A stretch of DNA of 64,000 nucleotides from an uncultured Flavobacteriaceae bacterium (GTDB lineage: Bacteria > Bacteroidota > Bacteroidia > Flavobacteriales > Flavobacteriaceae), in NCBI GenBank assembly GCA_947494715.1, contig CANLWG010000012.1, positions 124,001 to 188,000 on the forward strand, read 5' to 3'. The notes under the pieces are model-generated. The model saw nothing but the letters and a program-made list of their open reading frames with translations, did no database searches and was not told where the DNA came from. Below, one piece after another: positions 32,833 to 62,471 of the stretch (position 1 is its first letter; each line of letters starts with the position of its first letter). The position numbers and the translations under genes were made by a program.

Positions 32833-33149
32833 AATGAAAGATTAGGTTTTCAATTTCTGAAACACCCCTTTCACCAGGAAAAGTAATCATTGAACAACTT
32901 GGTTTGTCATGTCAACGACCTAATAGTATGGGTTTGTTTTGTATTTAAATAGCAGAATTTGTGTTCCGAAAAGCAGTTCGATTTAGTTGAAAAAACTCAA
33001 ATGAAAAATGGGGTTAGCTAAGATTCTCTTTTGCGTTTTTCTTTGGTGGAGTCAAACAGGTTCGAAAAATCCCCGGAATTCCTATATATAAAGAAGGGGA
33101 TACATTGATGAAGTGTATCCCCTTTCCTTTCTATGTTTAGGCAGACCTT
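32833..33149. other. Leader region between the peptide array and the TonB receptor
   Basis: 317 bases without a gene. It holds a hairpin (33096-33122) and, nearer the receptor, two GGTTTGT words 30 bases apart (32901-32907 and 32931-32937). No TAnnTTTG box is seen on the minus strand, so the receptor promoter is not identified. Confidence 0.6.
33096..33122 (-). terminator. Hairpin between peptide genes and TonB receptor (terminator or attenuator)
   Basis: GGGGATACA (33096-33104) pairs perfectly with TGTATCCCC (33114-33122), loop of 9. On the minus strand the stem is followed by TTCTTTATATATA, moderately T-rich. It lies 28 bases after the stop of the last peptide gene, so it probably ends or attenuates the peptide transcript before the receptor gene. 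Confidence 0.6.
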
Positions 33150-33263
33150 TTAGTGAAGGCAATAGGTCTGATCTGTTCTACGAATCCGTTTACTGTCTTG
33201 TATATTGGCTAGAAAAACAAGCCTTCTGGATTCTGTTACTGATTGATTGATGAATGTTTCCAT
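33150..33263 (-). CDS. Small protein, diverged fourth member of the 37-residue peptide array
   Basis: Open frame of exactly 37 codons plus stop, the same length as the three identical neighbours, at nearly the same spacing (157 bases). Identity to them is limited but in register: M1, T10-E11-S12 and S24-K25-R26. About two-thirds of the first 35 bases of the frame also match. It begins METFINQSVTESRRL and ends YCLH, losing the aromatic C-terminus of the others and gaining a Cys. It may be a paralogue with a different role or a decaying copy. Moderate confidence that it is expressed. Confidence 0.5.
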   Translation of the reverse strand: METFINQSVTESRRLVFLANIQDSKRIRRTDQTYCLH

Positions 33264-33306: not shown

Positions 33307-33420
33307 TTAGCGGTTGAAGTTCCTGTACTGCGCCCATTGTGCCCTTTTGCTACCGCTAAAGGAAGAGAAGTACTGACCTGTTTTTGATTCTGTCGCTGTT
33401 TTTGTAAATGATGCTTTCAT
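33307..33420 (-). CDS. 37-residue peptide, array copy 3
   Basis: One of three frames encoding the identical 37-residue peptide. It starts MKASFTKTATESKTGQ, continues YFSSFSGSKRA and ends QWAQYRNFNR. It is basic (seven K/R, one E), Ser/Thr-rich, with aromatic residues at 5, 17, 18, 21, 29, 32 and 35, and has no hydrophobic signal segment. Compared with the other two copies all DNA differences are at third codon positions and silent, which is direct evidence that the protein is selected. A dibasic K25-R26 could be a processing site (inference). I do not recognise the family. Confidence 0.72.
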   Translation of the reverse strand: MKASFTKTATESKTGQYFSSFSGSKRAQWAQYRNFNR

Positions 33421-33466
33421 GATTTTTTTGTTTTTATGTTGTTGATAGTTGTTTTTTTAATTGGTA

Positions 33467-33580
33467 TTAACGGTTAAAGTTTCTGTACTGTGCCCATTGC
33501 GCCCTTTTGCTACCGCTAAAGGAAGAAAAGTACTGTCCTGTTTTTGATTCTGTCGCTGTTTTTGTAAATGATGCTTTCAT
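33467..33580 (-). CDS. 37-residue peptide, array copy 2
   Basis: Same 37-residue product as copies 1 and 3 with its own silent changes (for example F18 TTT, F35 TTT, A28 GCG, A30 GCA). It begins exactly 160 bases from each neighbour. The 46-base spacers are alike and carry the AT-rich stretch CTAGAAATC or a variant just before the ATG, probably the ribosome-binding region. No modification enzyme or exporter adjoins, so a classical RiPP cluster is not evident. Confidence 0.72.
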   Translation of the reverse strand: MKASFTKTATESKTGQYFSSFSGSKRAQWAQYRNFNR

Positions 33581-33626
33581 GATTTCTAGTTTTTTATGTT
33601 GTTGATAGTTATTTTTTTAATTGGTA

Positions 33627-33740
33627 TTAACGGTTGAAGTTTCTGTACTGCGCCCATTGTGCCCTTTTACTACCGCTAAAGGAAGAGAAGTACTGTCCTG
33701 TTTTTGATTCTGTTGCTGTTTTTGTAAATGATGCTTTCAT
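33627..33740 (-). CDS. 37-residue peptide, array copy 1 (promoter-proximal)
   Basis: First gene of the minus-strand array and same product as copies 2 and 3; its private silent changes are S24 AGT and A9 GCA. The upstream spacer keeps ACTAGAAAT before the ATG. No clear TAnnTTTG box was found in the 500 bases upstream, so the promoter is unidentified. Downstream on the same strand come two more identical frames, the diverged copy 4, a hairpin and the TonB receptor. Confidence 0.72.
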   Translation of the reverse strand: MKASFTKTATESKTGQYFSSFSGSKRAQWAQYRNFNR

Positions 33741-34246
33741 AATTTCTAGTTTTTAATATTTTTTAGTATTGTTTTTTAATTGACTTACAACTAATAGACG
33801 ACAAGAGATATTTTTTGTTACAGTACTATGCATAAAAAGGTACTATTTTATATAATATTTAACATTTGGTTTTGAAACACTAACGCTATTCAAAATTTAA
33901 ATAATTGAAAATCAATATGTTAAATGAACTTTGTATTTTTTGATATACAGAATAAAGACCACAGCCTTTTGAAAAAGTTACACTATATCTCGATTTTTTT
34001 GATTCATACCTAATCCTTCATTCAGAATAGTACGATGAATGTTAGGTCGAGGCTTCGGAGAATTTTAAAAAAGAATAGATAAGAGAGTGGTCATTTCATT
34101 TTTGAAAATAGAGAGGCTATGCTTCAAGGAAGGTAGGGTACATGCAACTGATATGGTGAAGTTTCTACCATATACCTCTAAAATTTGATGTCTTTAAATA
34201 ACCATTCTATGGAAAAGCAATCCACAAAGACGTTTCAATAGGAGCA
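33741..34246. other. Gap upstream of the peptide array
   Basis: 506 bases, strongly AT-rich at 33780-33960. I see no gene, no perfect TAnnTTTG box for the array, and no clear terminator. It must contain the array promoter and the 3' end of the minus-strand sugar operon, whose last stop is at 34247. Confidence 0.5.
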
Positions 34247-40139: not shown

Positions 40140-41375
40140 ATGCAAGTTTCATTTGATTTAAGAAGGGACAAGGTCGATAAACACGGGTTAATGCCCGTTA
40201 GGGCTTTGATTACCTTCGAGGGTTTTCGAATCCGTAGGGTAGTGCAGGGGGCAAAATCGGATGGGAAACATTGGAATGCGAAAAATGAACGGATAAAGCC
40301 GCCTTTGAAATCGGAAGCCTACAATTACCATTTGGAGTATAATGATAAGATCGAACGTTTCGAGCAGAAGGCAAAAGAATTATTTCGGTTTTACCATATC
40401 CATGAAATCGCCCCGACCAAGGAGGATTTTCAAATGCGCTTCGACTCCGACAGGGGTATAAATATCTCAAATGATTTTGTGACATGCTTTGATGAATTTA
40501 TCGAGACGGGCAGACTGACCAAGGCAGAACGGACTTTAAAGTCATATGTAACGGCGCTTAATGTTTTTAAGGATTTTAGTTTCAAAGAAGATTATCCTTT
40601 ACGATTCGATACCATCAATAATGAATTCTTCATTAAATTTCAGGAGTTCTGCTTCTTAGTAAAGAAAACCAAGAACAATTATTTTTCAAGACTGATTACC
40701 ACTTTGAAAACATTCATGAGGTGGGCCATGGAGAACGGGTATCATGAGAACGTTACCTTCCTCAAATTCAAAGCCCCGGAGGAAGAAATAGAGGTCATAT
40801 ACCTTACCCTTGATGAATTAATGACGCTATACAATCACGATTTCAAAACGGAAAAATTAAGACGGGTCAGGGATTTCTATTGCTTTGGATGCTTTACGGG
40901 TCTCCGATTTTCCGATTTAAAAAATCTTCGGCCGTCGAATATATCCGAGAATGAGATCAAACTGAATATTCAAAAGACCAAAACGATCGATCATCGTGTT
41001 CCCCTAAATGAATACGCTAAAGCCATATTAGTGAAGTATAAGGATACCATTTGGGAACCCTTGCCTCTAATCTCCTCACAGAAGTTTAATAAGTATATCA
41101 AGGAATGTTGCCAAATTGCAAAGATCGATACCCCGACTTCAATTACTCGATATATTGGCACGCGAAGGTTGGATAAGACCGTTCCGAAATATGAGCTGAT
41201 AACAAGTCACACCGCCCGTAAGACCTTCGTAACGAATAGTTTGGTTTTGGGCATGAAAGAAATGGTCGTAAGAAATATTACAGGCCATAAAAAAGAGGAG
41301 ACTTTTAGACGATATGTGAAAATTGCCGAAAGCCTTAAGCAAGAAGAAATGTCGAAGGCATGGAGCAAAATTTAA
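40140..41375 (+). CDS. Tyrosine-type site-specific recombinase (integrase)
   Basis: 411 residues with the standard Bacteroidota phage-integrase layout: N-terminal arm-binding domain (about 1-90), SAM-like core-binding domain (about 110-220), and catalytic domain (about 230-405). Catalytic residues are visible: Arg in CFTGLRFSDL, His-x-x-Arg in SHTARKTFV, His in ITGHKKEETF and the nucleophile Tyr in FRRYVKI. It should integrate and excise the element at the core repeats to its left. Apparently intact. Confidence 0.95.
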   Translation: MQVSFDLRRDKVDKHGLMPVRALITFEGFRIRRVVQGAKSDGKHWNAKNERIKPPLKSEAYNYHLEYNDKIERFEQKAKELFRFYHIHEIAPTKEDFQMRFDSDRGINISNDFVTCFDEFIETGRLTKAERTLKSYVTALNVFKDFSFKEDYPLRFDTINNEFFIKFQEFCFLVKKTKNNYFSRLITTLKTFMRWAMENGYHENVTFLKFKAPEEEIEVIYLTLDELMTLYNHDFKTEKLRRVRDFYCFGCFTGLRFSDLKNLRPSNISENEIKLNIQKTKTIDHRVPLNEYAKAILVKYKDTIWEPLPLISSQKFNKYIKECCQIAKIDTPTSITRYIGTRRLDKTVPKYELITSHTARKTFVTNSLVLGMKEMVVRNITGHKKEETFRRYVKIAESLKQEEMSKAWSKI

Positions 41376-53327: not shown

Positions 53328-54770
53328 CTAATAGCCCGGATTTTGATCTGCCTCCGTCAAAGCATCATTTGTATTTATTTCCGCTATAGGTAAAGGAAAA
53401 AGCACAACGCGAGGCTCAAAAGTGTAACCAGCTTGAGTGATTAATTCTTCGGCTTTTTCAAATCTGAGCATATCGAACCATCGTTTGCTTTCTCCCATTA
53501 ATTCCTTACCTCTTTCCAAAAATATTTCATCTAAGAGTTCATTTGTCGATAAAGTTGTAGGAATATCAATATCCGGAGCAGGAGTGTTAAAATCGCGGCC
53601 ATAACCCCTTCTACGCACCTGGTTCCAATATTCCCTTCCTTGTGGACTTAGATTTCCGTCATCACGAATATCCGCTTCTGCATATATCAGGTACGCTTCT
53701 GCTAATCTATAAATGGGGTAGTGGTACGATAATTCGAATGCCGAAATGGCGTTTGGGTCTCTAAATTTACCGAAGTGTATGGATTCACTATCAACAAAAA
53801 CGGTTTCGCCGTCTTGATTGATCAATGGAGTGTCCTTATCATAGATGTTCCACGATTTACGTAAATCATTATCATCCCAGTCCACGATAAATGTATTGCG
53901 ATTGCCTAGAAAAACGAAAAAACTACCGCTAAATTCAGGCCAATCAGCTGCATGATACCATGCGGGTACGTTAGTTCGAAAACCACTTTCTCGAGCATGT
54001 CTAATAAAAAAAATGTTTTCTTCTGAAGGATTTTCTGGATCGAAAACCTCGCCGTAAACTTGTTCCAATTGATAGGTTCTGGAATCAATTACCTTACTCG
54101 CGTTCTGAATCGCCAATTCTGTATTTCCCTGCCATAGATAAGCAACGGCCAACGCCATCTGCACAGAGCCCTTGTTAGCTCTTCCATAACTTGTAGTTTC
54201 AGGCAATAATCCTTCTGCCAATAGCAAATCTTCCACGATTTGCCCATAAAGATCGCTAACGGGAGACCGCTCGGCAGGAATCAACCCAAAGTCATCAATC
54301 GGCTCGATTCTGATTGGTGCTGGACCAAATAGTCGACCAATCTGCAGATGGCTAAATGCCCTTGCGAAATAGCATTCTCCCAATAACTTATCCCTTAGAC
54401 TCTCATCTTCAACTATTAGAGGAATATTTTCAATTGAAATATTGGCCCTACCGATTACCCGGTAAAAATCTGTCCAAATAGCTCCTTGTCTCTCCATTGT
54501 TACTGAATTCGAAGTAAAAGCACCTGACGGAACACGGGAACCTCTCCCGTCCATATAATCTGATTTAAGATTGATTTCACTGACAAGATTAATATCGTAC
54601 GTTTGCTTCAACGCGGCATAAATACTATTTACACTAGAAATGGCATCTTGTTCGTTCCTGAAAAAACTAGTGTTGGTCAATCTATCTTCGGGTACCTCGT
54701 CCAAAAAATCTTCACAAGAGGTAGTTATAAGAAAAATAAATATGGGTAGAATAATTTTTATCGCTTTCAT
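53328..54770 (-). CDS. susD-like: SusD/RagB-family surface lipoprotein
   Basis: 480 residues. Lipoprotein signal with LITTSCEDFLDEVPED (Cys at about 19), followed by the SusD helical start NTSFFRNEQDAISSVNSIYAALK and the TPR-type scaffold; the C-terminus FLERGKELMGESKRWFDMLRF is the family signature. It binds the glycan at the cell surface as lid of the SusC transporter, encoded 21 bases upstream. Ligand specificity cannot be read from sequence. Confidence 0.95.
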   Translation of the reverse strand: MKAIKIILPIFIFLITTSCEDFLDEVPEDRLTNTSFFRNEQDAISSVNSIYAALKQTYDINLVSEINLKSDYMDGRGSRVPSGAFTSNSVTMERQGAIWTDFYRVIGRANISIENIPLIVEDESLRDKLLGECYFARAFSHLQIGRLFGPAPIRIEPIDDFGLIPAERSPVSDLYGQIVEDLLLAEGLLPETTSYGRANKGSVQMALAVAYLWQGNTELAIQNASKVIDSRTYQLEQVYGEVFDPENPSEENIFFIRHARESGFRTNVPAWYHAADWPEFSGSFFVFLGNRNTFIVDWDDNDLRKSWNIYDKDTPLINQDGETVFVDSESIHFGKFRDPNAISAFELSYHYPIYRLAEAYLIYAEADIRDDGNLSPQGREYWNQVRRRGYGRDFNTPAPDIDIPTTLSTNELLDEIFLERGKELMGESKRWFDMLRFEKAEELITQAGYTFEPRVVLFPLPIAEINTNDALTEADQNPGY

Positions 54771-54791
54771 TTTATTAGTTTTTTAATATTC

Positions 54792-57700
54792 TTAAAGACT
54801 GAGGTTCAATCCGACAGAAAGGGTTCTTACCTGCGGATAGGAGTTTCTTTCAATGCCAAAGTTTAGACCACTATTGCCAAACGTGTTTACCTCAGGGTCA
54901 TACCAGGAATAATTTGTGATAGTAAATAAATTGACCGCCCTGGCATATACTCTGGCAGACTTCAAAAATTTCCAATTTAGTCTATCGGTATCAAAATTAT
55001 AACCGATCGTCAACTGCTTAAATCTAAGATAGGATCCATCTTCAACAAACTGATTTGATGGAGAAGGAAAGGTACTTGTACCCATTCTTGGATATAAAGC
55101 ATTTCTATCTGGATTGCTCGGAGTCCATCTATTCAGAACCTCCGTTGTCATGTTACCACCCTTGCTGAAAGTATCATTCAATTCCATTTTACTGATGTTG
55201 AAAATATCATTTCCTTGAGTGCCCTCCAATAGTAAGTCAATAGTAAAATTCTTATATTCAAAATTTGAAGAAAGTGAATATATAAAATCCGGATTAGGGT
55301 TACCTATTATTGTATTGTCGTCAGCTGTAATTTCTCCATCACCATTTATATCCTCAAATTCTATGAACCCATCTTCAGTTAGCTGCTCTTTACGAATTAG
55401 ACCCCAGAAAGATGAAATAGGGTCTCCTTCCCTAGAAACGGTAACAGGAGGGAAAACACTCTGACCACTTCCAAATATGGGGTCTTGATTAGCGGTTTCC
55501 AGTACTTCATTCCTATTCGAGGCAAATGTCAATGTTGTAGAAAAATATAGATCCGGTTTATCTGCGATTACTCCACTGGCCTGTATTTCAACTCCTTTAT
55601 TCTCAACAGTTCCGATATTTCTTAAAACATTTGTAAAACCACTCGATTGAGGTAAGTTCACGAATGCCAATAGATCTTCAGTTGTCTTATTGTAATAATC
55701 TACCGTGAAAACCAATCTATCTTTCAAAAATCCAAAGTCTAAACCTATGTCAAGTTGTTTCGTTTCCTCCCATTTTAATTCAGGGTTGGCTATGTTAGAC
55801 GGCGCAAAGCCTATCGCTAAATTGGTTGGTCCGTCAATAAATGATTGAGTTACCGAAAAGCCAGACAAAGATTGATATGGAGATATATTTGTATTACCCG
55901 TAATACCCCAACTTCCACGAAGCTTGAGCGTGGAGAATATATCCAAATTGCTAATAAAATCTTCTTCCACTAATCTCCAGCCTACAGCAAAAGATGGAAA
56001 AAAGCCATACTTGTTATCTGGGCCCAATCTTGATGAGCCGTCATAACGGCCAGTCACAGTAAATAAATATTTATCCAACAGTGAATAATTTACTCTACTC
56101 AAATAAGAAAGCAATCGGAATTTATTGATGTTAGATTCTGGAATTCCAGGAAACGCAGCACTCTGCAAGGACTGATTAGTTGTATTTTCGTTCGGGAATC
56201 CAGAACCGAAACCAACTAAAAACTTATCTTCTTGTTCTTCCGTCGTAAATCCAACTACAGCGGAAATTCTGTTATCATCATTTATTTGTTTATCATAATT
56301 CAGGGTACTCTGAAAAAGCCAATAGAATGACCTTTGACTTGCTATTGAACCAAAGTTATTACTAGCAGGATCAAGATTGTTAGACCTGAATTCATCGCTA
56401 CGACTATCAGTATAATTTATACCTCCCTTCAATTCAAATTTCAGTTCGTCCGTAATTGTGAAATTAAGGCCCGTCGTGCCAAAAATGTTATAACTATCAT
56501 CAAGGTCGGTACGCTCTCTGATTAATGCTAAAGGGTGTAAAATTTGCTCTATGAACGGAAATGGATTAAGGGAACTATAATCCCCATTCGCATCAAAAGG
56601 AGCGATTAAAGGTGGTGCGGCCAGTGCAGAAGTTATAGAAGTATTCCTGGAATTTCCCCCAATTTGTCCGGGCCGCCCTCCCTCTGTATTATTTGCAGAG
56701 GTATGGTTTAAGTTGTAATGATTTTCCAGCGTGAGCCAATCCTTAATATCGTTTTTGAGATTAAGCTGGAGACTCTGTCTTTCAAATCCTGTACCGCTTA
56801 CAACGCCATCAATATCTAAAATATCTCCGGTAATTGAATATGTAGATTTTTCGTTTCCTCCGGAAAAGGCAAGGCTGTAATTTTTTCTTACCCCCGAACT
56901 AAATAATAAGTCCTGCCAATCCGTGTCGGCGTTTTGTAGATCGTTCAAATCAAATGTAGGGTCCCGGCCATCATTTATGGCTGCTTCATTAGCGATCGTT
57001 GCATATTGAATCCCATTTAATACGTCTAATTGCTTAGTCACATTCTCTATCCCGGTATTTAACGAAATATCAATTTTTGATTCTCCATTTTTACCCTTTT
57101 TTGTTGTGACAATTACCACTCCATTTGCAGCGCGTGCGCCATAAATGGAAGTTGCGGATGCATCTTTTAACACCTCGATAGAACTTATACTATTGGGGTT
57201 AATGTTATTGAGTCCACCTTGGATAGGGAGGCCATCAATAACATATAAGGGACTGTTATTACCTTGAATCGAATTATTCCCTCGTATTCTAACGGTTACC
57301 TCGGCACCCGGAGCACCTGATGTTTGAATCACTCTGACACCTGCGGCATTACCCCTAAGTCCATCCTCAACTGTTGTCAATTGTAATTTTTCAAGAGTTT
57401 CGGAAGAAACGGATGAGACTGACCCGGTTAAATCTACTTTTCGTACAGATCCATAGCCAATTAGTACAACCTCATCAAGACCAGCTGCACTTTCACTTAA
57501 TTGAACGTTAATTTCGGTTTGCCCAGATATATTAACTTCCTGCGTTGCAAACCCTATGTACGAAATTACAATTATGCTGTTTTGACTACTAACGGCAATG
57601 GTAAAATTACCATCAAAATCAGACTGTGTTCCATTGGTCGTTCCCTTTTCTACAATACTGGCTCCTGGTAAGGGTGTTCCATTTACGTCTGTTATCGTGC

Positions 57701-58100
57701 CACTGATTTCAATCTCCTGAACTGAATCGTACGTAGTTTTCCTTCGGGTCAGAACGATTTGATTCTTATTGATTTTGAAATCAAAATTTGCCCTTCCCGC
57801 TAATTTGTCCATAACTTCCCTTATCGTCTCTTTATCTGCGCTAAGTGAGATTTTTTGTTTATCGTCAATTTCCTTCACGTTATAAAAAAACCTGTGGCCC
57901 GTCTGCGACTTTATTTCTTTCAAAATCCGTTTTAAAGGAACATCATCATAGTTAAATTCCATTCTTTCTTGCGACAAGACTGAATTTGCCGATAATTGGA
58001 AAAGCATTAAGGAAGCCAGAAGAAAACAACATTTCATCTTAAAATTTAATTTTTTACCACGCTTTTTCCATAGAGCATGGTCCTCATCACATTTTTTCAT
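54792..58100 (-). CDS. susC-like: SusC/RagA TonB-linked outer-membrane transporter with STN domain
   Basis: 1102 residues. N-terminus with long signal (about 20-45), a secretin/TonB STN domain (about 50-115, FNYDDVPLKRILKEIKSQTG), carboxypeptidase-regulatory-like domain (about 130-215, ISGTITDVNGTPLPGAS), plug with SIEVLKDASATSIYGARAAN (about 295-320), and a barrel ending RTLSVGLNLSL. The STN domain is the one used to signal to a FecR-type anti-sigma factor, and such a gene lies directly upstream. It pairs with the SusD gene 21 bases downstream. Confidence 0.96.
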   Translation of the reverse strand: MKKCDEDHALWKKRGKKLNFKMKCCFLLASLMLFQLSANSVLSQERMEFNYDDVPLKRILKEIKSQTGHRFFYNVKEIDDKQKISLSADKETIREVMDKLAGRANFDFKINKNQIVLTRRKTTYDSVQEIEISGTITDVNGTPLPGASIVEKGTTNGTQSDFDGNFTIAVSSQNSIIVISYIGFATQEVNISGQTEINVQLSESAAGLDEVVLIGYGSVRKVDLTGSVSSVSSETLEKLQLTTVEDGLRGNAAGVRVIQTSGAPGAEVTVRIRGNNSIQGNNSPLYVIDGLPIQGGLNNINPNSISSIEVLKDASATSIYGARAANGVVIVTTKKGKNGESKIDISLNTGIENVTKQLDVLNGIQYATIANEAAINDGRDPTFDLNDLQNADTDWQDLLFSSGVRKNYSLAFSGGNEKSTYSITGDILDIDGVVSGTGFERQSLQLNLKNDIKDWLTLENHYNLNHTSANNTEGGRPGQIGGNSRNTSITSALAAPPLIAPFDANGDYSSLNPFPFIEQILHPLALIRERTDLDDSYNIFGTTGLNFTITDELKFELKGGINYTDSRSDEFRSNNLDPASNNFGSIASQRSFYWLFQSTLNYDKQINDDNRISAVVGFTTEEQEDKFLVGFGSGFPNENTTNQSLQSAAFPGIPESNINKFRLLSYLSRVNYSLLDKYLFTVTGRYDGSSRLGPDNKYGFFPSFAVGWRLVEEDFISNLDIFSTLKLRGSWGITGNTNISPYQSLSGFSVTQSFIDGPTNLAIGFAPSNIANPELKWEETKQLDIGLDFGFLKDRLVFTVDYYNKTTEDLLAFVNLPQSSGFTNVLRNIGTVENKGVEIQASGVIADKPDLYFSTTLTFASNRNEVLETANQDPIFGSGQSVFPPVTVSREGDPISSFWGLIRKEQLTEDGFIEFEDINGDGEITADDNTIIGNPNPDFIYSLSSNFEYKNFTIDLLLEGTQGNDIFNISKMELNDTFSKGGNMTTEVLNRWTPSNPDRNALYPRMGTSTFPSPSNQFVEDGSYLRFKQLTIGYNFDTDRLNWKFLKSARVYARAVNLFTITNYSWYDPEVNTFGNSGLNFGIERNSYPQVRTLSVGLNLSL

Positions 58101-58156
58101 AATTTTGAGTGCTTTTGATCGTTAGTACTAATTGTATTAATGGTCTTTTTACTAGG

Positions 58157-58177
58157 GGGAGTGCTCCAACACTTCCC
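58157..58177. promoter_or_regulatory. Hairpin between fecR-like and susC-like genes
   Basis: GGGAGTG (58157-58163) pairs with CACTTCCC (58170-58177), one bulged T, in the 82-base gap. On the minus strand (the direction of transcription) it is not followed by a T-run, so it is not a classic terminator; it may be a leader structure or partial attenuator. Confidence 0.4.
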
Positions 58178-58182
58178 TTTTT

Positions 58183-59358
58183 TTACCTTGTTATTGTTAT
58201 TACGTCTTGATTTATCTCATATTCGAAGGGCGTGCTAAGAGCAATTGTTTTGAGAACGGTCTCTATATCCTCGTCCACAAATTCTCCTCTATAAATTTCA
58301 TCTCTCAAACTTTCGGCCTTGTTCACGAATTGTACGGCGTATTTTCTTTCAAGCTTGACCAGTATTTCTGAAAATTTCATATTATTAATTACAAGACGGT
58401 TTTGCATCCATGCGGTATACATATCGGTATCTACTTTTGTTCTATTAAAATTATTACCGAACTTATCATAGTTAGCTTGAAAACCCGGAGTCAGTTGTAT
58501 TCCATTCTCAGGTGTTCTAGTTTCATAAACCCTAACTGAACCTTCTGCTAATGTAGTTTCTGTATTACCATCTGTTTCATAAGATGAAATATTGAATTTG
58601 GTGCCGAGCACCTTGATATCTACCTCTTGCGTATTTACAATAAAGGGCTTGTCCTTGTTTTTAGCAACATCGAAGAAGGCCTCGCCCTCCAAATAGACAA
58701 TCCTATTATTGTCCGAATTGACAAGATTTTGGGGGAAGCGAAGTTTTGAACCTGCATTCAACCATACTTTCGTACCATCCGATAACTTTAGCTTGAAAAT
58801 CTGACCATGTGGAATAAAAACCTCATTATACACCGGTTTTTTATTTGAAAGATTTAAAGTCTCCTTATACGATAGCGTATTGCCTCCTTTGGTCGCTACC
58901 GTATTCCCTTTGGCATCCGAAACCAGTTCATCTCCTTCATGATGTAAGACTTTAGTCGACCCATCAGCCATCTTTATTATGACCTCATTGCTAAGAGACC
59001 TATTTTTTTCTTCTTCGGCTTCGACAACCTGTATTGAAGTTTGGGTAACATCAGGTAGTAATTGACGCTTTGCCAAAATACCGATAGTTAGTAAAATAGC
59101 GAGCACAGCTGCATATTTCAAGATAGTGGGAAGCAGCTTTCGAGCTTTCTTTTTTGATTTTAAAGTTTCTAAAAATCTTCGGTATGCCAAATCAGAATCA
59201 AAGTCGGCGGATAGTTCATAGTTCGACTTTTTGATTCGGTTCCTGAAAACAGCCTTATTGGCCTCATTTTTCAGAACCCATATCTCCAATGCTTTTCTTT
59301 CCTCAGGGGAGATTGTCCTATCGATAAATTTTTCAATGAGCAAATGATATTTGGACAT
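58183..59358 (-). CDS. FecR-family anti-sigma factor
   Basis: 391 residues. Cytoplasmic N-terminal helices (about 1-80), one membrane helix (about 80-100, ILKYAAVLAILLTIGILA), then the FecR periplasmic beta-domain (YNEVFIPHGQIFKLKLSDGTKVWLNAGSKLRFP) and the C-terminal STN-like domain (about 325-391, ILVKLERKYAVQFVN). It relays occupancy of the SusC-like transporter to the ECF sigma factor encoded divergently, 92 bases away. The unit is a canonical transenvelope signalling set. Confidence 0.95.
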   Translation of the reverse strand: MSKYHLLIEKFIDRTISPEERKALEIWVLKNEANKAVFRNRIKKSNYELSADFDSDLAYRRFLETLKSKKKARKLLPTILKYAAVLAILLTIGILAKRQLLPDVTQTSIQVVEAEEEKNRSLSNEVIIKMADGSTKVLHHEGDELVSDAKGNTVATKGGNTLSYKETLNLSNKKPVYNEVFIPHGQIFKLKLSDGTKVWLNAGSKLRFPQNLVNSDNNRIVYLEGEAFFDVAKNKDKPFIVNTQEVDIKVLGTKFNISSYETDGNTETTLAEGSVRVYETRTPENGIQLTPGFQANYDKFGNNFNRTKVDTDMYTAWMQNRLVINNMKFSEILVKLERKYAVQFVNKAESLRDEIYRGEFVDEDIETVLKTIALSTPFEYEINQDVITITR

Positions 59359-59450
59359 TCGGTCTTCTTTTTAATTAAAAGATGCAATAATCACAAAAAA
59401 CCCCTATGTATTTTTAATTATTCTTAGATTTAGTTTATTTTCCATTGAAT

Positions 59451-59984
59451 ATGAACGAGCAAAAATTGATAAATAACCTACGGAAAGGTGATCCAGGTGC
59501 ATATCGGTTCTTATTTACCGAATACCATGACTGGCTTTGTAACTATGTCTACAATCTATGTGGCGATAGGGCATTGGCAGAAGATATTGTTCAGGATGCC
59601 ATTGTAAACTTATGGGAAAAAAGAAAGGTCATCATCATTACTTCATCGCTCAAGAATTACCTGTTCAGAACATGCCATAATCAATTTTTGCAACATGTTC
59701 GAAGCCAAAAGATACATTTTGATACCTTGGATAAAATTAGATGGGAAGTTATCGCAGAGGTCGCTTTGGAAGAAAATATTCATCATCTGAAAATGGAAAA
59801 GCTGAATAGACTGATCGACCAGCTGCCCCCTAGGTGTAAGGAGGTATTCATTCAAAATAAATTGGAAAAAAAGAAATATAAAGAAATCGCCCTTGATATG
59901 GGAATTTCCGTGAAAACCGTCGAGAATCAAATGTCAAAAGCACTCCACTTTTTAAAGATGAATGCGACTACATTTATGTTATAA
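59451..59984 (+). CDS. ECF sigma-70 factor (FecI-like) of the SusCD locus
   Basis: 177 residues. Region 2 with RFLFTEYHDWLCNYVYNL and DIVQDAIVNLWEKR; region 4 with LPPRCKEVFIQNKLEKKKYK and the HTH KEIALDMGISVKTVENQMSKAL. The ATG at 59451 is preferred over a TTG two codons earlier. It is divergent from fecR, susC and susD and would activate them when the FecR-like anti-sigma is relieved. It is the last gene of the cargo before the transfer module. Confidence 0.95.
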   Translation: MNEQKLINNLRKGDPGAYRFLFTEYHDWLCNYVYNLCGDRALAEDIVQDAIVNLWEKRKVIIITSSLKNYLFRTCHNQFLQHVRSQKIHFDTLDKIRWEVIAEVALEENIHHLKMEKLNRLIDQLPPRCKEVFIQNKLEKKKYKEIALDMGISVKTVENQMSKALHFLKMNATTFML

Positions 59985-60495
59985 AATTTCTTGGCATCTT
60001 CAAAATTATAAGCTCTTAATTATTTTACTTCTGCAATTTTTTTAAATGATTTTTTTGGGACTCACTATATTTATTTACTCAAAATCTAGTTATCCAAATT
60101 AGAGCCCTCTTACAATCTTAAATTTAAGACTCTTTATTACTTCTCTCTAATCATAGAAATCCGTACAGGTCAAAGCGTATCTTTTTTCAAAAGATAGCGA
60201 GCGGGAATCATGCTGCGCAGTGATTCCCGCTCGCGCCTGCGGCGGGCAACCGCAGGCTACGCCTGCTCCGACATGGGATTTTGTAATTATAACACTTTAT
60301 AGAATTTTTATAGTGATATGTTTAAATAGGTGGTTTTCAACACCAAAAGCTATAAAACTCCCTGCATTCGTCTGGAATTCATTGATTTTCTTGAAGTTCT
60401 GAAAACTAGACATTTATGGCTTGCAGCATGCACCCTTTTTACAAGTGCAAAGGTTTCAAATACTTTACAAAGGATATTTGAACAAAGTAATCGGC
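59985..60495. other. Gap between the cargo and the transfer module
   Basis: 511 bases, mostly AT-rich, broken by a GC-rich hairpin cluster at 60197-60266. An open frame from 60421 runs into the mobilization gene, but the recognisable protein starts at 60496. Nothing else is seen. Confidence 0.6.
60197..60266. other. GC-rich hairpin cluster, candidate oriT
   Basis: Fourteen-base perfect stem GCGAGCGGGAATCA (60197-60210) / TGATTCCCGCTCGC (60221-60234) with a 10-base loop. Directly after it GCCTGCGG (60235-60242) pairs with CCGCAGGC (60250-60257). GCAGGC (60252-60257) could instead pair with GCCTGC (60261-60266), so two folds compete. Located 230 bases before the mobilization gene, the usual place for oriT. 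No nick site identified. Confidence 0.55.
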
Positions 60496-60834
60496 ATGAG
60501 GAAAAAGAGCATTATCATAAACGAAAGAAGCCATAAGGAACTTAAAAAAATGGCCATGGAATACAACCGAGACATCGGAAAGTTTACAGAGGAGATGATT
60601 CTGTATTTCCAGAAAACAGGAACAGATCCGCAAGCCATCAAAGGCAAAAATGCCACTGAAATGATAAAGGTAATCGATAGACGCATTGTGTCGTTTTTCA
60701 AAACTCAGGAGTCCGAAATTCTATATCCTATCCATAATCAATTGCTCAAAAACGGACAACGAACAGAGACCCTTTTTAAAAAACTTATTGACCAATTGAA
60801 TACGGTTTTTGAGCGGATGAAGTATCGAAATTGA
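60496..60834 (+). CDS. BfmA/BtgA-like mobilization accessory protein
   Basis: 112 residues from the ATG at 60496. A ribbon-helix-helix-like N-terminus (KSIIINERSHKELKKMAMEY, FTEEMILYFQKTG) and a helical C-terminus (ESEILYPIHNQLLKNGQRTE) match Bacteroides BfmA/BtgA relaxosome proteins, which bind oriT and aid the relaxase. Its stop overlaps the relaxase start (TGATG), so the two are translated together. The longer open frame from 60421 adds a sequence without resemblance to the family. Confidence 0.8.
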   Translation: MRKKSIIINERSHKELKKMAMEYNRDIGKFTEEMILYFQKTGTDPQAIKGKNATEMIKVIDRRIVSFFKTQESEILYPIHNQLLKNGQRTETLFKKLIDQLNTVFERMKYRN

Positions 60835-62471
60835 TGCCGGTCAGTATCGTCCATCAGACCTCTTCTGACAATAAAGGAAGCTGTTCGAAATATGGTCATT
60901 ATCTGAACAAGGAGAATAAGGAGCTGAGAAAAGAGGGCAATGGGCACCGACAACAATTTTTCTTCAACCAAGACCAAAATATGATGACCACGGTACAAGC
61001 GATTTCGATGGTAGATGATAACAATAAGAATAAGGGTCTGGCCAAAAAACAAGACAAGTATTTTACGTTGACCTTGAATTTCAGCCAAAACGAACAAGAA
61101 CATCTGACATCAACATTGGCAAAAAGACCGATCGAAAATGTAGAAGAATTGAACGATAAAGAATATGAAAACTACAACGAAGTCATAAAACTATTTACGA
61201 AACAGGCCATGCGAAACTATGCCGCCAATTTCAAGAAGGATATCGGGGAAAACCAAATTGTATGGTTCGCAAAAGTAGAACACAAAAGAAGGTATAAAGG
61301 AACCGATAAAGAAGTTATGACGCGCAGGGCAAAAAGCGGAGATCCGAAGAAAGGATTACAGACCCATGTGCATATAACCGTCTCACGGATGCATAAAGAC
61401 TACCGGATTAATCTTAGTCCGTTGGCGAATGCCAGAAGCAGCGAAAATCTTGTTCTAAACGGAAGGAAAGTCAAAGGTGGATTTGACCGCTCAAATTGGA
61501 AACAACTCAATGAAGATTCCTTTGATAAGATGTTCAAATATAAACGCAGTCTTGAAGAAAAATTCGAAACGCTCAGAAGACTAAAGCACGGGACATTGGA
61601 AGAGAAGCTGGCATTGAAGACCGAGATTCGACAGGAGAAACGAAAGAATCCCGAATTACAGAAAAAGGGCAAGCTAGTAATGGAACCGTCTTACTTTAAT
61701 CAAGAACGAAATAGGATTACAAAGTCAGAGGCCATTTCAATCATAAATGACAATGGAAAGGGTGTTGAAATTTCAAAACAAGAAGACCATTACTTTTCTT
61801 TCGCCCTAAATCTTACCCAAAACGAACAAGAACACCTAGTGTCCATTATTGCGGAACGGCCAATCGAGGATATTGAAGAACTGACCGTCAAAGAATATGA
61901 AAAATACAATCAGGCTTTGCAATTGTTTACCCAACAGGCTATTCGCAATCATGCACTCAGTTTGAAAAAGAATATTGCCGAAAAAAAGCTAAGGTGGACT
62001 GCCAAAATAGTACAATCGGAAAAGCAGAAGGACGTGACCAAAGAGTTCAATCATGGTAAACTGGAAAGCCAAAAGACCAAGCTAGGTTTACAAATTGAAA
62101 TACGTATTTCCGTTTCGCCGAAGCAAAAGGAGCATGGTATAGAAAATAAGCCTTTGAAAAATAATGAAGTCAACCAAAAACATGGACAAGAAGTGAAAAA
62201 GGTAATGGAGGATTTTAACTACTCCAAATGGAAGGAACTAAACCAAAATTCCTTTGATGAGCTATTTGGGTATGAACGTGCCCTTGAAGAAAAAAAGCAA
62301 TTACGGAGAACTCCTGAACGTCTGACATTTCGAAATAAAGGAGCATTAAAAGTTCAAAAAGCATTGGAGAAAAAGAAAAATCCAGGACAGCAAAAAAACC
62401 AGCAAACACAAAAGGAAACAGAGAAAGAGAAAGGTGCCAATAAGGGCAGGAATAATCAAATATCACTTTAA
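60834..62471 (+). CDS. MobB/DUF5712-like relaxase with a degenerate internal duplicate
   Basis: 545 residues from the ATG at 60834. The N-terminus has SDNKGSCSKYGHYLNKE, typical of DUF5712-type Bacteroidota relaxases, with candidate catalytic Tyr20/Tyr23, and the metal-binding pair H178-x-H180 in THVHITVSR. A second copy of the domain starts at about residue 283 (FNQERNRI, LTQNEQEHLVS, WKELNQNSFDELF), offset 242 residues from the first. There the HVHITVS element reads QIEIRISVS, so both histidines are lost. The first copy is probably the active relaxase, nicking oriT to start transfer. Confidence 0.8.
   Translation: MPVSIVHQTSSDNKGSCSKYGHYLNKENKELRKEGNGHRQQFFFNQDQNMMTTVQAISMVDDNNKNKGLAKKQDKYFTLTLNFSQNEQEHLTSTLAKRPIENVEELNDKEYENYNEVIKLFTKQAMRNYAANFKKDIGENQIVWFAKVEHKRRYKGTDKEVMTRRAKSGDPKKGLQTHVHITVSRMHKDYRINLSPLANARSSENLVLNGRKVKGGFDRSNWKQLNEDSFDKMFKYKRSLEEKFETLRRLKHGTLEEKLALKTEIRQEKRKNPELQKKGKLVMEPSYFNQERNRITKSEAISIINDNGKGVEISKQEDHYFSFALNLTQNEQEHLVSIIAERPIEDIEELTVKEYEKYNQALQLFTQQAIRNHALSLKKNIAEKKLRWTAKIVQSEKQKDVTKEFNHGKLESQKTKLGLQIEIRISVSPKQKEHGIENKPLKNNEVNQKHGQEVKKVMEDFNYSKWKELNQNSFDELFGYERALEEKKQLRRTPERLTFRNKGALKVQKALEKKKNPGQQKNQQTQKETEKEKGANKGRNNQISL

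What the first reader, a model, noticed from the sequence alone, without database searches (positions are those of the whole stretch)
33307..33740. Three identical 37-residue peptides kept by purifying selection
Three tandem frames encode exactly the same peptide. The 114-base coding units differ at nine positions, and every one is the third base of a codon and silent. This is strong direct evidence that these short frames are real genes. They are absent from typical annotations because of their size. The peptide is basic, Ser/Thr- and aromatic-rich, has no signal sequence, and ends YRNFNR.
Basis: seen in the sequence. Interest (0 to 1): 0.92.

Follow-up and report, generated by a model that had tools for sequence, protein, structure and literature searches.

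The report
Tandem microprotein operon in marine flavobacteria
A stretch of DNA that looks empty encodes several copies of a tiny positively charged protein behind one strongly conserved stress-type switch, and related arrays of tiny proteins behind the same switch occur in many relatives of this bacterium, with no known function.

Summary
On the minus strand, 33307-33740, three tandem ORFs encode the same 37-residue peptide; 9 of 9 variable sites are silent third bases. A fourth, diverged homologue follows (33150-33263). One promoter module precedes the array (33795-33864): TGTTAA, two TAGTAC boxes 17 bp apart, then TGTAAC-N16-CGTCTA, an ECF-sigma layout. In the 5.97-Mb genome the core TGTAACA-N(10-20)-CGTCTA occurs twice, each time before an array. 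In 397 family genomes the module is in 157, peptides of this or a sister 28-residue class in 178, both in 144. Same-length ORFs within operons give dN/dS 0.175 (190 pairs) and 0.047 (95 pairs chosen at 90% protein identity or more). Pfam, NCBIfam, PHROGs and PDB gave nothing credible. A sigma gene of a DUF4252 operon has the same -35/-10 in 26 of 30 fetched loci and was found in 178 of 178 peptide genomes, but also in 160 of 219 without. I read this as an ECF-controlled operon of basic microproteins, dosage raised by tandem copies, perhaps binding RNA or a regulator. Gene status and operon are well supported; sigma identity is inferred; molecular function is a guess.

The parts
33859..33864 (-). 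TGTTAA half-site, distal element of the promoter module (the second half-site seen in many relatives is degenerate here)
   Evidence: sequence; logo of free positions over 116 loci
33840..33845 (-). distal TAGTAC box
   Evidence: sequence; its TAC is 92-100% conserved at positions not fixed by the search pattern, 116 loci
33823..33828 (-). proximal TAGTAC box, 17 bp from the distal one
   Evidence: part of the search pattern
33817..33822 (-). TGTAAC, -35-like element of an ECF-type promoter
33795..33800 (-). CGTCTA, -10-like element, 16 bp from the -35 (start of transcription expected near 33788, inferred)
33627..33740 (-). microprotein ORF copy 1, 37 aa MKASFTKTATESKTGQYFSSFSGSKRAQWAQYRNFNR
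33467..33580 (-). microprotein ORF copy 2, same protein
33307..33420 (-). microprotein ORF copy 3, same protein
33150..33263 (-). diverged terminal homologue, 37 aa METFINQSVTESRRLVFLANIQDSKRIRRTDQTYCLH, found again in two sister species
33093..33125 (-). stem-loop after the last ORF, terminator-like; the scan scored it on the + strand only
   Evidence: minus strand 33065-33150 folds at -24.5 kcal/mol, z -2.16

Best explanation
This is a self-contained operon of microproteins. One ECF-type promoter with extra upstream activator-like boxes precedes three copies of a 37-aa basic peptide and one diverged relative, and a stem-loop closes the unit. Shown by sequence: the frames are under protein-level selection; the promoter module, tandem layout and peptide classes recur across Flavobacteriaceae. 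Inferred: one transcript; the promoter is used by the ECF sigma factor of the DUF4252 operon, whose own promoter has the same -35 and -10, together with a second regulator at the TAGTAC/TGTTAA boxes. Guess: the peptides (median net charge +6, conserved Trp and Lys/Arg-rich C-terminal part, hydrophilic) stay in the cytoplasm and act by binding RNA or a regulatory protein under envelope or nutrient stress, with tandem copies setting dosage.
For: Coding. Promoter: TGTAACA-N(10-20)-CGTCTA has 2 matches in 5.97 Mb, both directly before peptide arrays; its reversed control has 1; with TAGTAC in front, 2 and control 0. GTACTGTAACA-N(14-20)-CGTCT is in 157 of 397 family genomes, mostly once. Of 176 distinct regions downstream of the N15 form, the first small ORF belongs to one of four peptide classes (motifs written by me) in 152; by eye 13 more carry such peptides. 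Over 397 genomes: 144 promoter and peptide, 13 promoter only, 34 peptide only, 206 neither. Free positions of the promoter are conserved over 116 loci. Sigma: 26 of 30 fetched sigma loci have GTAAC-N-CGTC before the gene; of 30 sigma loci fetched from this genome (of 49 matches) one, this one, has it in the sense direction and one other (L231) has it on the opposite strand. Sigma found in 338 of 397 genomes, 178 of 178 with peptide, 156 of 157 with promoter. Peptides: median pI 11.1 (37-aa class) and 11.6 (28-aa class), charge +6 in both; GRAVY medians -1.15 and -1.51. No RNA consensus structure in 20 aligned units.
Against: No transcript, protein or phenotype data. The sigma is also in 160 of 219 peptide-negative genomes, and 18 of the 20 sigma-negative genomes listed (of 59) are under 3 Mb or under 90% complete, so co-occurrence may reflect genome size or completeness; two listed negatives, G004 and G033, are large and complete. 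G399 has the promoter without a detected sigma (76% complete). The boxes are missing from the sigma's own promoter: TAGTAC and TGTTAA within 50 bp of the -35 in 0 of 26. 11 of 30 array loci printed and 34 of 178 peptide genomes lack the strict promoter. 4 of the 157 promoter genomes (G016, G093, G211, G375) match only with a 19-bp gap, probably by chance inside a gene; G093 is counted among the 144. 5 of 176 promoter regions lead to a protein of 151-188 aa instead. Nothing tests RNA or protein binding; the AlphaFold model is poor (mean pLDDT 67.9, pTM 0.28). No signal-peptide or membrane predictor was run.
Confidence: 0.55

Rival explanations
1. Regulatory RNA: the repeat units act as a small RNA or sponge and the frames are incidental.
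For: Tandem repeated short unit behind a stress-type promoter. The F. psychrophilum ECF-type motif SM6 precedes, among others, a putative regulatory RNA, Rfp11 (PMC9723704, passages read); no link of Rfp11 to this array was tested.
Against: dN/dS 0.175 and 0.047; third positions most variable and no gaps in the ORF; no consensus structure, 0 predicted pairs over 20 units; no Rfam match in the window at gathering thresholds.
Confidence: 0.08
2. Leader peptides that control a downstream gene by attenuation.
For: In some clades a gene that looks like exbD (label recalled, not searched) lies near the array: 22 of 117 loci, 15 of them downstream.
Against: No neighbour cluster covers more than 34 of 117 loci, and that one is on the other strand and mostly upstream; a stem-loop follows the window array; up to five tandem copies (L207) fit no attenuator known to me.
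Confidence: 0.05
3. Secreted peptides: RiPP or bacteriocin precursors, or toxins with repeated identical cores.
For: Identical tandem precursors are typical of some RiPPs (recalled); the peptides are cationic.
Against: No neighbouring gene shared across clades; hydrophilic, GRAVY median -1.15; the window peptide and one 28-aa peptide have no match in the plasmid and phage collections.
Confidence: 0.07
4. Structural or housekeeping role, for example a ribosome- or nucleoid-associated peptide, with the promoter serving growth control and not stress.
For: Very basic, Trp-containing, multi-copy, which suits dosage.
Against: Detected in 178 of 397 family genomes only; no ribosomal chain among the PDB hits at E up to 10 for the 37-aa profile and one 28-aa peptide.
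Confidence: 0.2

Closest known systems
Small DUF1127 proteins (CcaF1, YjiS, Agrobacterium small DUF1127 proteins)
   Same: Very small, several per genome in some species; reported to bind RNA (CcaF1, PMC10253847, abstract read) or the sensor kinase PhoR (PMC12501420, abstract read). Their arginine-rich character and stress-sigma control are recalled.
   Different: No DUF1127 match in Pfam for the peptides scanned; different motif, phylum and promoter; several tandem ORFs in one unit.
SM6 promoters of Flavobacterium psychrophilum (PMC9723704; passages and section 17 part 1 of 5 read)
   Same: ECF-type -10 region with CGT; includes an ECF sigma/anti-sigma operon and a small transcript; induced under low nutrients.
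   Different: SM6 also precedes type IX secretion genes; the module here has TAGTAC and TGTTAA boxes and few targets. Whether the two sigmas are the same was not tested.
DUF4252 ECF sigma operon (PF14060)
   Same: Own promoter GTAACA-N-CGTC in 26 of 30 loci, same -35/-10 type and spacing as the peptide operon.
   Different: Upstream boxes absent in 26 of 26; function unknown to me; such an operon appears in a P. gingivalis iron stimulon table (PMC10434189, one passage read).
Type I toxin peptides in tandem (Ldr, Ibs; recalled)
   Same: Tandem short ORFs in intergenic DNA.
   Different: Those are hydrophobic membrane peptides with antisense RNA (recalled); these are hydrophilic and cationic.

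Membership tests
ECF-sigma-dependent promoter | AAC-containing -35 and CGT-containing -10 with about 16-17 bp spacing (recalled definition) | tested here: met
   TGTAAC-N16-CGTCTA, recurring in 157 of 397 family genomes
ECF-sigma-dependent promoter | Transcription depends on an ECF sigma factor | not testable with these tools
   only shared -35/-10 and co-occurrence with the DUF4252-operon sigma
DUF1127 small proteins (PF06568) | Match to the Pfam model | tested here: not met
   no DUF1127 hit for the window peptide or for one member each of the other classes scanned
DUF1127 small proteins (PF06568) | RNA or PhoR binding | not testable with these tools
   needs bench work
Type I toxin | Hydrophobic single-pass peptide | tested here: not met
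   GRAVY medians -0.77 to -1.51 over four classes; no membrane predictor run
RiPP precursor | Modifying enzyme or transporter alongside | tested here: inconclusive
   no neighbour cluster shared across clades in 117 loci of up to 8 kb; neighbours were clustered, not identified one by one
Attenuation leader peptide | Conserved regulated gene directly downstream | tested here: not met
   stem-loop after the window array
Known protein family | Match in Pfam, NCBIfam, PHROGs or PDB | tested here: not met
   only weak hits (best E about 0.05 to 0.3), read as chance

The most novel reading that the evidence does not exclude
A previously undescribed, family-wide class of microprotein operon: one strongly conserved compound ECF promoter, usually one or two per genome, dedicated to tandem arrays of 24-44 aa basic peptides of several sequence classes that share a Trp and Lys/Arg-rich end, making the peptides the main dedicated output of a conserved sigma plus second-regulator input in Flavobacteriaceae.
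Probability: 0.4. Interest if true: 0.85.

Novelty: new variant of a known kind. Interest (0 to 1): 0.73.

Why it matters
It turns an intergenic gap into a conserved regulon detected in 178 of 397 sampled Flavobacteriaceae, a family important in the sea. The promoter is specific enough that a 31-bp pattern leads to the genes in many genomes, so the regulator, the inducing signal and the peptide target can all be sought directly. It also gives a concrete candidate output for the widespread DUF4252-operon sigma factor, whose role is unknown to me.

Tried and rejected
Pfam, NCBIfam, PHROGs and PDB sequence searches of the peptides gave no credible match. Rfam gave no match in the window at gathering thresholds. 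Plasmid and phage collections gave none for the window peptide and one 28-aa peptide. A search for a shared neighbour gene found only clade-level synteny. A conserved RNA structure was sought and not found. A reading of the TGTTAA pair as an 11-bp PhoB-like box was considered: exact TGTTAA-N5-TGTTAA occurs in 5 distinct peptide promoters and at 2 other places in the 1.59 Mb held, the spacing seems to vary between 10 and 11 bp, and a paper on the Flavobacterium PHO regulon had no Pho-box passage (PMC8115612, passages), so it is not claimed. TGTAAC-N16-CGTC has 12 sites in this genome against 6 for the reversed control; apart from the sigma operon and the two arrays they precede unrelated genes or none, so a wider regulon is not claimed. 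AlphaFold on 63 aligned peptides was too poor to search folds with. Literature: seven full-text searches on small-ORF arrays, the promoter or flavobacterial transcriptomes listed no title or abstract describing these arrays, and two more were on DUF4252 and DUF1127. I read listings except where passages or abstracts are named; only open-access PMC papers are held, so this is weak evidence of absence.

Full report
Observation. The window array lies on the minus strand. Three ORFs of 114 bp (33627-33740, 33467-33580, 33307-33420) in a 160-bp tandem unit encode one and the same 37-aa peptide. Nine columns vary; all are silent third positions. The chance of nine of nine without protein-level selection is about 6e-7 to 6e-6. 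Spacers differ at 5 of 46 positions, so the units have had time to diverge.

A fourth ORF (33150-33263) encodes a diverged homologue, found again in two sister species. The same genome has a second array on another contig (L002) with a 40-aa leader peptide followed by a 37-aa and a 38-aa member. A stem-loop follows the window array.

Family. With a profile of 19 members (A2) the 37-aa class is found in 66 of 397 genomes of the family at E up to 0.01. A 28-aa class with consensus MRTLNxNQxTxxxxxSKSxxWNxKRRYR (A3) is in 146 of 397 at the same limit, though not in this genome. I dropped 7 and 21 weak genomes (E above 1e-3 and 1e-4) before combining: 59 and 125 remain, 178 in union, 6 with both. 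Other peptides seen in these operons are a leader with a GFGWNTDR-like motif, terminal peptides of about 43-45 aa, and a 24-aa form repeated four times. Often one to five copies of a main peptide are followed by a different terminal peptide.

Selection. Over all pairs of same-length ORFs (up to 50 aa) within operons that share at least 50% of residues, 190 pairs, counting synonymous and nonsynonymous sites gives pS 0.375 and pN 0.086, ratio 0.175; for the 95 pairs with at least 90% identity the ratio is 0.047. Forty pairs have identical protein and different DNA, and one pair had identical DNA and was left out. Pairs are not independent, and choosing pairs by protein identity lowers pN; the 50% figure is the fairer one. 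Across 20 arrays entropy by codon position is 0.49, 0.65, 1.14 with no gap in the ORF. Between the window and G001 the copies differ by 1-3 amino acids, one of them shared by all three G001 copies.

Promoter. Upstream regions share TGTTAA..TAGTAC-N11-TAGTAC-TGTAACA-N15-CGTCT; 19 of the 30 array loci printed have the GTACTGTAACA form, 11 do not. TGTAACA-N(10-20)-CGTCTA has two matches in this 5.97-Mb genome, both before arrays, and one in the reversed control. GTACTGTAACA-N(14-20)-CGTCT is in 157 of 397 family genomes; I saw one match in the reversed control, in G085. In a phylum sample of 277 genomes 6 match the 15-bp form, all 6 among the 28 family members, 0 of the other 249. At positions not fixed by the pattern, TAC of the upstream box is 92-100% conserved over 116 loci.

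What the promoter leads to. In 176 distinct downstream regions (identical 150-nt starts merged; near-identical species from two collections may remain, so not independent) the first small ORF falls in one of four classes, by motifs I wrote, in 152. Of the other 24, read by eye: 13 carry such peptides with a variant leader, truncation or motif; 5 lead to a 151-188 aa protein with a hydrophobic-looking N-terminal segment; 3 are cut by the locus end; 3 show nothing. Over 397 genomes: 144 promoter and peptide, 13 promoter only, 34 peptide only, 206 neither; G093 is among the 144 and G016, G211, G375 among the 13.

Regulator. This genome has 49 matches to sigma region 2. Of the 30 fetched, only the gene at C1:738094 has TGTAAC-N16-CGTC in the sense direction just upstream; one other locus (L231) has a match on the opposite strand. 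It is an ECF-type sigma (PF04542, PF08281) followed by a 143-aa protein without a Pfam family and a DUF4252 protein. Among 30 genomes its gene is preceded by the element in 26. It is found in 338 of 397 genomes at E up to 1e-40, in 178 of 178 with peptide and 156 of 157 with promoter, but also in 160 of 219 without peptide. Of the 20 sigma-negative genomes listed, 18 are small (under 3 Mb) or under 90% complete. So this is consistent with a link and does not prove it. In 0 of 26 sigma promoters is TAGTAC or TGTTAA found within 50 bp upstream of the -35, which suggests a second regulator for the peptide operon, or else a different sigma.

Function. The peptides are strongly basic and hydrophilic; no signal-peptide or membrane predictor was run. 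They have no neighbour shared across clades and no credible database relative. The most conserved positions of the 37-aa class are TE, FS, KR, W and R; those of the 28-aa class are MxT and WNxKRR. The nearest working precedent is the DUF1127 group, tiny proteins reported to bind RNA (PMC10253847, abstract) or PhoR (PMC12501420, abstract). These peptides are not members of it. I therefore propose, at low confidence, RNA or regulator binding under stress, with copy number as a dosage device.

Known context. In F. psychrophilum an ECF-type motif, SM6, is induced at low nutrients and precedes an ECF sigma/anti-sigma operon and a putative regulatory RNA, among other genes (PMC9723704, passages). 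Whether that sigma is this one was not tested.

Noticed in passing
window 33957-33982 (-): A second TGTAAC-N16-GGTC element about 160 bp upstream of the promoter, same orientation; similar sequence is visible in the upstream regions of L003, L005 and L006. In the window scan with one mismatch, 3 matches against 1.99 expected, it is not above chance.
   Followed up: partly
L089, L118, L158, L196: The same promoter module leads to a 151-188 aa protein with a hydrophobic-looking N-terminal segment instead of tiny peptides; L089 has two such copies.
   Followed up: partly
L215, promoter at index 2191 of the reverse complement: Four tandem copies of a 24-aa peptide MRTTIFNNSKRVRWSAHRNYAIKS, a minimal form that keeps the SKRxxW..R core.
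   Followed up: no
117 loci L091-L207: In 22 loci an exbD-like gene (label recalled) lies near the array, 15 downstream on the same strand; in 34 loci a protein of about 220 aa is encoded on the other strand, in 27 of them upstream of the promoter.
   Followed up: no
window 53328-59984: ORFs that look like an ECF sigma, FecR, SusC and SusD in a row, as in a polysaccharide utilisation locus (by eye from the ORF list).
   Followed up: no
window 40140-41375 and 60421-62471: A tyrosine-recombinase-like ORF and mobilisation-like ORFs, perhaps an integrated element (by eye from the ORF list).
   Followed up: no
L270-L299: The sigma promoters share their own upstream stretch, AAATTTACTTACAT-like, about 30-35 bp before TGTAAC in many of the 26 loci.
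   Followed up: no
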